From: Bacillota bacterium
GTDB lineage: Bacteria > Bacillota > Sulfobacillia > JAJZYS01 > JAJZLH01
NCBI GenBank assembly: GCA_021850485.1
Contig: JAJZLY010000014.1
Location: 33,526 to 97,525 of the forward strand
Direction: 5' to 3'
DNA length: 64,000 bases
Shown here piece after piece: positions 4,286 to 7,232 of this stretch (positions within the stretch are counted from its first letter, which is position 1; every line of letters begins with the position of its first letter). The position numbers and the translations under genes are program-made. Under the pieces are notes generated by a model that was given only the letters and a program-made list of their open reading frames with translations, did no database searches and was not told the DNA's origin.

Positions 4286-5332
4286 CTAGGCCGCCCCCAC
4301 CTTGCGGACTCCCTGGACCAGGGCCTGTAGCTTGCGCACGGCCTGCCAGCGGGGTGTTTGCGAAAATCCGCAGTCCGTGGTCAGGCTGAGGTCCTCGGCC
4401 GCAACGTGGCGCAGAAGGGTTTGCACCCGCCACGCCACATCGTCTGGGGTCTCGATGTACGAACTCTTGACGTCGACCACCCCGGCTGCCAGGAACAGAT
4501 GCCGGCCAGCCTGATCCAGCCACTGCGGCCACAACTCCACCTCTGCCATCTCTCGGTTGGCGAACTCCAGCACCCACTCGTCTGCCGGGATCTTCACTAG
4601 TTCCCGGACCAGTGGGTCGTAGCGGCGCCAGGCAAACGGCCGCCCCTGATTGTCGCCAAAACAGATGTGGACGGATTTGGCGACGTCGATTCCTGCGAGC
4701 GCTCGCTGAGCGGCCTCCACCGCCAGCAGTGGGTCCTGGTCGCGCGCGATCATCGGTTCATCGATCTGCACGTGGCTGGCCCCGGCCCGGATCAGGGCCT
4801 TCAACTCGCGATTGACCAGATCGGCCAATGCGAGCACGGCGTCGGGGCGGCTGGGGTAGCCGGCCGTGACCTCGATCGGAGTGGCCAGCGTGATCGGGCC
4901 AGCTACGGTCGCCTTCACCGGACGCGATGCAAAGGATTTGGCTACGGTCCAGGTCTCCACGGCGCCCAGCGTGACCTCCGTTGACAGGGCGGCACTCAGT
5001 TTGCGCTGGGGCATCTGGTCGTAGCCAAAGGGGCCCAGCCGACGAGCCACCGGCTGCAACGGCATGCCAAGCGCATCGTAGTACTGACCGAGGAAGCCAC
5101 CGGCAACGTAGATCTCTCCACTGCCGATCTCATCGAGACCTGCTCCCTCCTGGTCGATAACCGCCAGGTGCGTGGCATCGCGGGCGGCCTCAGCCAAATC
5201 TGCCGGGCCGACCGACGGATCCTGTAGCGCCCGCACCCGCAAGGAGATGAGCCAGCCTGGCGCCGACATGCTGCCTACGGCTGTCGTCCTCAGCCCCCCG
5301 AAGGCATGGTTTCCCGGCCGCACTGCGTCCAC
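4286..5332 (-). CDS. Cobalamin-independent methionine synthase C-terminal-type protein (MetE-like)
   Basis: A single UROD/MetE-like TIM barrel of about 348 residues, equal to the catalytic C-terminal half of MetE without the N-terminal half. TTAVGS near the start corresponds to the family TTxxGS motif. HVQIDEPM, HICFGDN and a late cysteine in TTDCGFSQTPR match the metal and homocysteine site of MetE. Stand-alone proteins of this type transfer methyl groups from folates or methylcobalamin-like donors to thiols; the exact donor is unknown. I chose GTG 5332-5330 because GGGAGG lies 8 bases upstream; an in-frame ATG at 5380 would add 16 residues. tRNA-Glu follows downstream. Confidence 0.85.
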   Translation of the reverse strand: MDAVRPGNHAFGGLRTTAVGSMSAPGWLISLRVRALQDPSVGPADLAEAARDATHLAVIDQEGAGLDEIGSGEIYVAGGFLGQYYDALGMPLQPVARRLGPFGYDQMPQRKLSAALSTEVTLGAVETWTVAKSFASRPVKATVAGPITLATPIEVTAGYPSRPDAVLALADLVNRELKALIRAGASHVQIDEPMIARDQDPLLAVEAAQRALAGIDVAKSVHICFGDNQGRPFAWRRYDPLVRELVKIPADEWVLEFANREMAEVELWPQWLDQAGRHLFLAAGVVDVKSSYIETPDDVAWRVQTLLRHVAAEDLSLTTDCGFSQTPRWQAVRKLQALVQGVRKVGAA

Positions 5333-5479
5333 TTGCGTTCCCTCCCGCATTCGTGTGCTGAACGGACCATTCGTGATCAACTGGCTCGATCCCGCGCCGG
5401 CTGTGGCAGATGCCCCACCGAGAGACTATGCTGAGATGTAAACTCTGGCTCGCTAGGGCAACCTGAGGAGGTAGGCGCC

Positions 5480-5947
5480 ATGGCTCAGTTGACCCTCTAT
5501 CAGTTCGACACCTGACCCTATTGCGTATTGGTTCGCCGCCGGCTCGGAGAGCTCGGCCTCGCCTTCCAGGTGATCACCATCCCCCGTCCGCGCAGTGAGC
5601 GTCAAGAGGTTCTGGCCGTGAGCGGACAGCCCACGGTACCAGTCCTGGTCACCGACGATGGCGTCTTTGCTGATGAAAACGACATCTTGGCCTATCTGGA
5701 GCGGACCTATGGCCCGGCGCCCAAACGGCCGCAGGCCAAGGCCGAGCTATGGCCAACCGACTTAGCGGCCAAGCTAGATGCCCTGGCCACACGCCTAGCC
5801 GAGAGCAGCGAAGAGCTTTTGGCCATCTCCCGCGCTGCCCAAGTTCATCAGGCCGTGGACCTCACCAACGTGTTGCAGGTCGCTGGCCAGGCGGCTGCCG
5901 ATGCCGCCCGCTGGACGGCCGGACAGGCGGAGTCAGCGCGCTCCTGA
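5480..5947 (+). CDS. Glutaredoxin / GST-N-domain protein with in-frame TGA (probable selenocysteine) at the active site
   Basis: ATG 5480 has a strong GGAGG eight bases upstream and opens a frame whose twelfth codon is TGA (5513-5515). Read through, the N-terminus is LYQFDTUPYC, so the TGA falls on the first cysteine of the glutaredoxin CPYC motif. The frame then runs 143 more codons with the cis-proline segment TVPVLV and the late DENDILAYLE helix of the fold, then a helical C-terminal extension. Starting after the TGA would delete the first strand and the active site, so read-through as Sec is the simplest reading. A hairpin with bacterial SECIS geometry begins 22 bases after the TGA. A nonsense mutation or sequencing error (TGC to TGA) is the alternative. 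The Sec machinery genes are not in this window. Confidence 0.75.
5538..5557 (+). promoter_or_regulatory. Candidate bacterial SECIS hairpin downstream of the TGA codon
   Basis: GCC GGCT pairs with AGCT C GGC around the loop CGGAG, giving seven pairs (one G-U) and a bulged C. The loop starts 29 bases after the TGA and has G in its second position, matching the known bacterial SECIS pattern of a 16-37 base spacing and a G among the first two loop bases. Confidence 0.5.
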
Positions 5948-6056
5948 GGCCCGGGAGTGGCTATACCGCGACCCAGAAAACCCCTCTCCCCAGTCTTGGT
6001 CCCGAGCCGCCGGCGACGAAGCGCTCCGGCCTCTGGCCTCACCCTGTGGCGCTGAG

Positions 6057-7232
6057 CTAGGCATGTGGGCCTAAGAGCTCGGCGCCGTCATTAGCACATA
6101 GCTGGGCAAGGAGTCGGGCGGCTGGGCGCCAGGAAAAGCGCTGCCCAGCGCTCGGTGGCGGGCAAAGCCCGAAGGCCGGGCCCCAGCCTTCTCGCCACTC
6201 GAAATTGTCCCAAAGCGTCCAGTACAGGTAGCCCGCGACATCCAACCCCTGCTGCCTTGCCTCCAGCAGCACCCGCACGTGGCTGCGCAGATAATCGCAG
6301 CGCAAGTCCTCATCCAGCGTGGCGATGCCGTTTTCGGTGATCAGCACGGGCAGACCCATCGGCTTGAGCCAGGACAAAACGGCAGCCAGATCGGCGCTGT
6401 CCGTCACCCAACCCATCTGGCTGAGTCGTTCTCCCGGCCTGCTGCGGCGCACCTGGGTCAGGCCACGGGCATAACTGCGGGCATAGAAGTTGACACCCAA
6501 GAAGTCATGAGTGCCTGCGGTCCACTGGTAGAAGTACTGGTTGAACACCGCGTCCTGCAGGCGGCTGCCCAGCTGGTCCATCAGGTGGTGCGGGCGATGG
6601 GGCCAGATCCGGGTCAGATGTTTGGCGACACCCACGCGCCTGGCCGGGTCGATCTGATGCAAGATTTGAAAAGCCTGCCGATGGGCCCGTGCCAATGCGC
6701 GCCCTACCCGATTCACCTCGGTCAGAGAGCGACGACCCGGGGGCCACTCACCGAGCAGGTAACCCATCACCGCCAGCACCATCGGCTCGTTGATGGTCAC
6801 CCACCAGGTGGCATCGAGCGCGCTGCCCACCACCTTGCACAGGCGGGCGAAGTGAGTCGTGAAGTTTGGGCTGAGCACGCCGCCCTCTGCCTCCAGCCAC
6901 TTGGGCAGTGTGAAGTGGTGCAGCGTGACCACCGGTTCCAATCCGCAGTTCCTGGCCGTATCCACCATCTGCCGATAGTGGGCCAGGGCCGCCTGGTCCG
7001 TGGCACCAGGCGCCGGCTCGATCCGGCTCCACTCCACCGAAAAGCGATAGGCATTCAATCCCAAGGCCGCCACCTGACGAATGTCGTCCAGTGCATGCAG
7101 GTAGTGCTCGCAAGCCTTCCCCGCACCTTGGAACCCAGGTGTGATCGTCCGCTCGAATCTGGACCAGTCGGCGTGGTCGATGTTGCCTTCTACCTGGTAC
7201 GAAGAGGTCCCGACGCCCCAAAGCACGCCCAC
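6057..7232 (-). CDS. Glycoside hydrolase family 1 beta-glycosidase
   Basis: Hydrolyses terminal beta-linked glucosides or galactosides by a retaining mechanism. The GH1 start pattern WGVGTSSYQVEG is present, the acid/base glutamate lies in TINEP, and the nucleophile lies in ITENG. WTLWDNFEWREGW near the C-terminus is the family aglycone/sugar-binding signature. At 391 residues it is shorter than the usual 440-450, probably from shortened loops in the middle of the barrel, since both catalytic motifs and the C-terminal signature are intact. No signal peptide is visible, so it is probably cytoplasmic. It converges on the glutaredoxin gene and diverges from the dTMP-kinase-like gene. Confidence 0.9.
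   Translation of the reverse strand: MGVLWGVGTSSYQVEGNIDHADWSRFERTITPGFQGAGKACEHYLHALDDIRQVAALGLNAYRFSVEWSRIEPAPGATDQAALAHYRQMVDTARNCGLEPVVTLHHFTLPKWLEAEGGVLSPNFTTHFARLCKVVGSALDATWWVTINEPMVLAVMGYLLGEWPPGRRSLTEVNRVGRALARAHRQAFQILHQIDPARRVGVAKHLTRIWPHRPHHLMDQLGSRLQDAVFNQYFYQWTAGTHDFLGVNFYARSYARGLTQVRRSRPGERLSQMGWVTDSADLAAVLSWLKPMGLPVLITENGIATLDEDLRCDYLRSHVRVLLEARQQGLDVAGYLYWTLWDNFEWREGWGPAFGLCPPPSAGQRFSWRPAARLLAQLCANDGAELLGPHA

What the first reader, a model, noticed from the sequence alone, without database searches (positions are those of the whole stretch)
5480..5947. Glutaredoxin with selenocysteine-type TGA at the first active-site position
Seen: a strong ribosome site, ATG 5480, then an in-frame TGA exactly where the first cysteine of CPYC belongs, followed by an intact glutaredoxin frame and a 7-bp hairpin with a GG-containing loop at SECIS distance. 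Known: bacterial Sec glutaredoxin-like proteins exist, and UGA at a redox cysteine is the usual sign. Inference: this is a selenoprotein that automatic annotation would start after the TGA and misname.
Basis: partly seen in the sequence, partly recalled or inferred. Interest (0 to 1): 0.85.

Follow-up and report, generated by a model that had tools for sequence, protein, structure and literature searches.

The report
Selenocysteine glutaredoxin with helical-hairpin tail
This bacterial gene encodes a glutaredoxin-type redox protein with an in-frame TGA codon at its active site, conserved in related species and predicted to be read as selenocysteine, so databases that treat the TGA as a stop list the protein cut short, without what is likely its most reactive residue.

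Summary
A strong ribosome site precedes ATG 5480, and an in-frame TGA at 5513-5515 replaces the first Cys of CPYC in an otherwise intact 155-aa glutaredoxin/GST-N protein. The genome carries selA, selB, selD (itself with an in-frame TGA) and a tRNA-Sec with anticodon UCA. Both other held species of the genus keep the TGA; in a sister family three genomes have TGA and six have TGC at that codon. The hairpin at 5538-5557 is present in all six TGA genes, its stem fixed at synonymous sites (0 of 12 codons vary, 53 of 101 outside) while its loop codon varies, and it is lost in the Cys genes. I conclude this is a selenoprotein (Sec12/Cys15). Sec-glutaredoxins are known; what is new is the architecture, a Grx fold plus a predicted two-helix hairpin, found only in this order among the genomes searched. 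Also, all eight glutaredoxin-domain genes over the Pfam cut-off in three genomes of this genus carry TGA at the active site. Reductant and substrate are unknown; selenium incorporation is predicted, not measured.

The parts
5465..5471 (+). Shine-Dalgarno-like GAGGAGG, 8 nt before ATG 5480
   Evidence: direct reading
5480..5947 (+). predicted selenoprotein gene, 155 aa, UPYC glutaredoxin/GST-N domain plus C-terminal helical hairpin; stop TGA 5945-5947
5513..5515 (+). in-frame TGA, predicted Sec12, first position of the UPYC active site
5522..5524 (+). TGC, Cys15, predicted resolving cysteine
   Evidence: role inferred from the Grx family
5528..5947 (+). truncated ORF (TTG start, 139 aa) as listed in protein sets; no Shine-Dalgarno before it and it lacks the active site
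5538..5557 (+). SECIS-like hairpin: stem 5538-5545/5549-5557 with bulged T5553, loop GGA 5546-5548, 30 nt after the TGA
5480..5719 (+). glutaredoxin/GST-N fold, residues 1-80
5762..5845 (+). predicted C-terminal helix 1, residues 95-122
5855..5941 (+). predicted C-terminal helix 2, residues 126-154

Best explanation
The gene at 5480-5947 has an in-frame TGA exactly where the first active-site cysteine of a glutaredoxin belongs, and this TGA is predicted to be read as selenocysteine, with the hairpin at 5538-5557 as the likely SECIS element. Inferred steps: SelB with Sec-tRNA(Sec) binds the hairpin and inserts Sec at codon 12. The selenolate of Sec12 would attack disulfides (or mixed disulfides with a small thiol), and Cys15 would resolve the adduct as an intramolecular selenenylsulfide, reduced in turn by a low-molecular-weight thiol or by thioredoxin reductase. 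The predicted C-terminal helical hairpin would serve for dimerisation or substrate binding, in the place of the larger helical domain of Grx2 and GST proteins. In related species the same protein exists with Cys instead of Sec.
For: Sec machinery in the same 1.61-Mb, 97% complete genome: selB 353 bits over 1-575 of 581, selA 487 bits, selD 348 bits with one in-frame TGA, tRNA-Sec 72.7 bits with anticodon TCA. TGA conserved in 3 of 3 held genomes of the genus (76-80% identity). Sec/Cys exchange at the same codon: TGA in G005, G008, G010; TGC in G006, G007, G009, G012, G013, G014. The hairpin has the same place and a GGN loop in 6 of 6 TGA genes. Its mean stability is -11.5 kcal/mol against -4.2 (sd 1.5) for synonymous recodings, reached by 0 of 1000 (gene by gene, 2-6% of recodings reach it); in 5 Cys genes the forced hairpin averages +0.1, and 998 of 1000 recodings do as well. 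Stem codons: 0 of 12 vary synonymously, against 53 of 101 outside the hairpin region (Fisher p 2.8e-4, codons of related genes taken as independent), while the loop codon varies in both genera. The fold with Cys12 is predicted at pLDDT 93.8. Thioredoxin reductase is present (358 bits, cut-off 343).
Against: No selenium measurement and no reads. The generic SECIS criteria are permissive: 4 of 5 Cys genes also yield some passing hairpin, and for G001, G005 and G010 the best generic hit was not this hairpin. In wider 60-nt folds the lower pairs differ in G001 and G002, and in G010 the stem shifts register to a 4-nt loop. The hairpin's energy is ordinary for its base composition. No Rfam family matches it. 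Codon differences in the tail (codons 95-150) are 15 synonymous to 16 nonsynonymous between G000 and G001, so the helical part is only loosely constrained in sequence. Substrate, reductant and the role of the tail are inference; glutathione synthesis was not searched for.
Confidence: 0.93

Rival explanations
1. The TGA is a real stop: the gene is a pseudogene or starts downstream at TTG 5528, making a shorter protein without an active site.
For: Protein sets list exactly this 139-140 aa form. TGA ends the gene itself and 5 of 8 other window ORFs examined, so it is a working stop codon here.
Against: There is no Shine-Dalgarno before 5528 and a strong one before 5480. Residues before the TGA (LTLYQFDT) are the same across the genus, though those ten codons alone hold too few differences to test selection. 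The TGA itself is kept in all three species, the codons after it (13-75) differ by 26 synonymous against 5 nonsynonymous changes between G000 and G001, and orthologues have Cys there.
Confidence: 0.03
2. UGA is read as Cys or Trp at this codon by a suppressor or variant tRNA, not as Sec.
For: The chemistry needs only a Cys-like residue; the column is Cys in relatives.
Against: A canonical tRNA-Sec, SelA, SelB and a TGA-containing SelD are present, a SECIS-like hairpin is kept in TGA genes and not in Cys genes, and TGA is otherwise used as a stop. No search for variant tRNAs over the whole genome was made.
Confidence: 0.02
3. The TGA is a sequencing or assembly error for TGC/TGT.
For: One base would turn it into a Cys codon; reads were not available.
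Against: The same TGA is in two other species of the genus and in three genomes of a sister family, together with the hairpin.
Confidence: 0.01

Closest known systems
Bacterial Sec-glutaredoxins (PF00462, UxxC), e.g. C. oremlandii Grx1
   Same: Sec in place of the first Cys of a glutaredoxin CPxC motif. PMC7642778 (passages seen) describes a U(or C)PXC motif and a native catalytic Sec; PMC13188914 (passages and section 5 seen) lists Grx UxxC among prokaryotic selenoproteins; a table in PMC1794560 (passages seen) gives 3 Grx among 285 selenoproteins.
   Different: This protein has about 70 more residues, forming a predicted helical hairpin, and scores higher against GST_N_3 (61.7) than Glutaredoxin (49.1). 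I did not compare it residue by residue with known Sec-glutaredoxins.
NCBI Uxx-star glutaredoxin-like (seleno)proteins (NF041212)
   Same: Small Grx-fold proteins with Sec at the first active-site position.
   Different: Score 37.2, below the cut-off of 66; the Uxx-star model is 70 positions long, without the tail. The genome's two other Sec-Grx genes come closer (57.7 and 58.7, still below 66).
Glutaredoxin 2 (GrxB) and GST-fold proteins
   Same: Grx/GST-N domain followed by a helical domain; GrxB structures 4kx4 and 3ir4 are among the Foldseek matches.
   Different: GrxB model 32.9 bits, cut-off 186.65; here only two helices are predicted; no GST_C family matched; predicted Sec instead of Cys.
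Short CPYC glutaredoxins of the same order (about 80-90 aa)
   Same: 39-58% identical over the matched part.
   Different: Cys active site (CPYC, one CPCC); no helical tail.

Membership tests
bacterial selenoprotein gene | in-frame UGA aligned with a conserved Cys of homologues | tested here: met
   TGC in 6 of 6 full-length g5 homologues
bacterial selenoprotein gene | Sec machinery selA, selB, selC, selD in the genome | tested here: met
   all over the curated cut-offs
bacterial selenoprotein gene | SECIS hairpin: loop 3-9 nt with G in the first two, stem 4-16 bp, 16-37 nt from UGA, at most -7.5 kcal/mol (PMC13188914, section 5 read) | tested here: met
   loop GGA, 8 bp with one bulge, 30 nt, -12.2 kcal/mol; the criteria alone are permissive
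bacterial selenoprotein gene | selenium in the protein | not testable with these tools
   needs 75Se labelling or mass spectrometry
Glutaredoxin (PF00462) | profile over gathering score | tested here: met
   49.1 bits against 22.9, with codon 12 read as Cys
Glutaredoxin (PF00462) | glutathione-dependent disulfide reduction | not testable with these tools
   needs an enzyme assay; glutathione synthesis genes not searched
NCBI Uxx-star (NF041212) | curated model cut-off 66 bits | tested here: not met
   37.2 bits
GrxB (TIGR02182) | curated model cut-off 186.65 bits | tested here: not met
   32.9 bits
glutathione S-transferase | GST N-terminal domain | tested here: met
glutathione S-transferase | all-helical GST C-terminal domain | tested here: inconclusive
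   no GST_C Pfam match at E up to 0.1; two long helices predicted; the tail was not searched on its own

The most novel reading that the evidence does not exclude
A small-genome Bacillota genus has gone over to an all-selenocysteine glutaredoxin system: every glutaredoxin-domain gene found over the Pfam cut-off (UPYC, UPWC, UGSC) carries Sec, and the UPYC protein is a new two-domain 'mini-GST' selenoprotein class that switches between Sec and Cys among close relatives at a syntenic locus.
Probability: 0.5. Interest if true: 0.6.

Novelty: new variant of a known kind. Interest (0 to 1): 0.5.

Why it matters
It adds a clear selenoprotein that gene finders truncate, with its SECIS-like element visible at synonymous sites, and natural Sec/Cys pairs at one orthologous locus. 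Such pairs allow direct tests of what selenium buys in a dithiol glutaredoxin. A genus whose detected glutaredoxins are all predicted Sec forms is a good place to ask why some lineages rely so heavily on selenium.

Tried and rejected
Rfam scan of 5300-6100: two chance-level matches only. Energy z-scores of the single hairpin: not significant. Generic SECIS scan: passes in 4 of 5 Cys genes, so it was not used as evidence. Phylum sample (398 genomes drawn from a larger group): 9 with a match, of which four are G000, G001, G002 and G005 and five new genomes hold only short Grx matches. Plasmid collection: one distant short Grx hit. Neighbourhood: in this genus the gene lies between a MetE-like and a beta-glucosidase-like gene (these names are my own reading of the protein sequences, not from a family search). 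In the sister family a HAD-like gene (likewise my reading) lies beside it in G005, G007 and G008, 3 of the 5 f4 stretches looked at; the ORF lists for G009 and G010 do not show it, but overlapping ORFs may hide it. No partner conserved across both families was found. Tree: Sec and Cys forms intermix (P0018 Cys beside G010 Sec, 93/81), but only 6 of 24 inner branches are well supported and the truncated rows have no known residue in the column, so the direction of change is not claimed.

Rows dropped: G013 was left out because its stretch equals that of G014, so 5 of 6 Cys genes were tested there. In one search the SelD motif pattern was found in 11 of 13 loci scanned (not in L063, L075). One search listed the best 120 of 657 proteins and scored only part of the candidates; I took single proteins from it, no counts. 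Literature: searches (the last showing 15 of 567 papers) turned up Sec-glutaredoxins as a kind but no paper on this two-domain form among those listed; subscription journals are mostly not held.

Full report
Observation. The window reads GAGGAGG at 5465-5471, ATG at 5480, and an in-frame TGA at 5513-5515 (codon 12) followed by CCC TAT TGC, then an open frame to a TGA stop at 5945-5947. Read through, the product matches GST_N_3 (61.7 bits, cut-off 22) and Glutaredoxin (49.1 bits, cut-off 22.9). The TGA stands at the first cysteine of CPYC; Cys15 is intact.

Can the organism insert selenocysteine? The parts are all there. The genome in which the window lies (1.61 Mb, 33 contigs, 97.2% complete) has selB (353 bits, nearly full length), selA (487 bits), selD directly next to selA (348 bits, with one in-frame TGA) and a tRNA-Sec (72.7 bits, anticodon TCA). 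The SelD TGA lies in the motif SGUGCK, so SelD is itself a predicted selenoprotein. Among 14 relatives, selA matched in 13 (12 over the cut-off; G006 only a piece, G013, 78% complete, none), and selD matched in 14, 13 of them over the cut-off; all 16 over-cut-off copies carry one TGA. TGA is also a normal stop: it ends this gene and 5 of 8 other window ORFs examined.

Conservation. A protein search of 61 genomes found the full-length protein in both other held species of the genus, 76% and 80% identical, each with one TGA, at the same codon. G001 is the record 'Bacillota bacterium isolate MAS3.bin100' judging by its contig of equal length. In family f4 of the same order, full-length homologues have TGA in G005, G008 and G010 (genus g4) and TGC in G006, G007, G009, G012, G013 and G014 (genus g5); G011 (82% complete) has only a short paralogue. 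A HAD-like gene, by my reading, lies beside it in G005 and G008 (Sec) and G007 (Cys), so there the exchange is at one locus. A profile search of 154 genomes of the class found full-length members in 12, all in f1 and f4; a sample of 398 genomes of the phylum added none. A metagenome protein, P0018, is a Cys form that groups with the Sec form of G010; its DNA was not seen.

The hairpin. In all six TGA genes a hairpin with loop GGN sits 30 nt after the TGA: 8 bp with one bulged T in genus g1, 7 bp in g4 (27-nt segments). It meets the published bacterial SECIS model (PMC13188914, section 5 read: loop 3-9 nt, stem 4-16 bp, G in the first two loop positions, 16-37 nt from UGA, -7.5 kcal/mol or lower). 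Taken alone it is not unusual for its base composition (z -0.65 and +0.56); generic SECIS criteria are met somewhere in 4 of 5 Cys genes too; and in 60-nt folds the lower pairs differ in G001 and G002 and the register shifts in G010. Comparison separates the two groups. With the loop held at the same codon, the six TGA genes average -11.5 kcal/mol against -4.2 for synonymous recodings (0 of 1000 as low; 2-6% for each gene alone). Five Cys genes average +0.1, and 998 of 1000 recodings of those do as well or better. Among codons with a conserved amino acid, stem codons vary in 0 of 12 cases and codons outside the hairpin region in 53 of 101 (p 2.8e-4), while the loop codon varies in both genera. 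These tests treat related genes as independent, so the numbers overstate certainty, but the pattern is that of a constrained stem with a free third loop base, present only where Sec is needed.

Annotation. Protein-set entries for this gene and its nearest relatives (P0002-P0005) are 139-140 aa and start just after the TGA. P0022, whose longest contig has the same length (358,721 bases) as the G008 contig that holds the Sec form, is 140 aa, starts after the TGA, and is called 'glutathione S-transferase N-terminal domain-containing protein [Thermaerobacter sp.]'.

The wider glutaredoxin set. A Glutaredoxin-domain search of the window's genome gave three genes over the cut-off, all with a TGA, each at the first active-site position: UPYC (here), UPWC (C25:87121) and UGSC (C15:42867). 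G001 has 3 of 3 and G002 2 of 2 such genes with TGA, at the active site. So 8 of 8 Glutaredoxin-domain genes over the cut-off in this genus are predicted Sec forms. The fourth, sub-threshold row in the window's genome (19.1 bits, cut-off 22.9) has no TGA and a CQLC motif, so a more distant thiol protein exists. The sister family f4 mixes Sec and Cys forms, including UPHC against CPHC relatives within one genus; of the two rows each in G003 and G004, one and none have a TGA.

Mechanism. Shown: the gene anatomy, the Sec machinery, the conserved TGA, the Sec/Cys exchange and the constrained hairpin. Inferred: SelB-driven Sec insertion; Sec12 as nucleophile and Cys15 as resolving residue, as in dithiol glutaredoxins (PMC7642778, passages seen, describes this for C. 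oremlandii Grx1); reduction by a small thiol or through thioredoxin reductase, which the genome has. Glutathione synthesis was not searched. The role of the helical hairpin (dimer or substrate contact) is a guess from GST-like proteins.

Known or new. Sec-glutaredoxins are an established kind (PMC13188914, passages and section 5; PMC1794560, passages). This protein is outside the curated Uxx-star (37.2 bits against 66) and GrxB (32.9 against 186.65) models. The two-domain form, confined to one order among the genomes searched, is a new variant of that kind.

Noticed in passing
L110 1501-1677 (genome C25:87121-87297): A second predicted Sec-glutaredoxin, active site UPWC, with an 8-bp hairpin (loop GTT) 23 nt after the TGA, also in G001 (L125).
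   Followed up: partly
L111 1501-1677, minus strand (genome C15:42867-43043): A third predicted Sec-glutaredoxin, active site UGSC, also in G001 and G002.
   Followed up: partly
L010 (genome C20:57266-58189): selD with an in-frame TGA (SGUGCK), adjacent to selA; all 16 over-cut-off selD copies in 13 relatives also carry a TGA, and G005, G007 and G010 have two each.
   Followed up: partly
L096 7084-7254 and L097 1904-2068: In G005 and G008 another TGA-containing Grx-like gene (GPGUHEC / GAGUNEC) lies 2-3 kb from the UPYC gene.
   Followed up: no
L122, L123 against L115, L117: Very similar glutaredoxins of genus g5 differ as UPHC (G007, G014) or CPHC (G006, G009): apparently a second Sec/Cys switch within one genus.
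   Followed up: no
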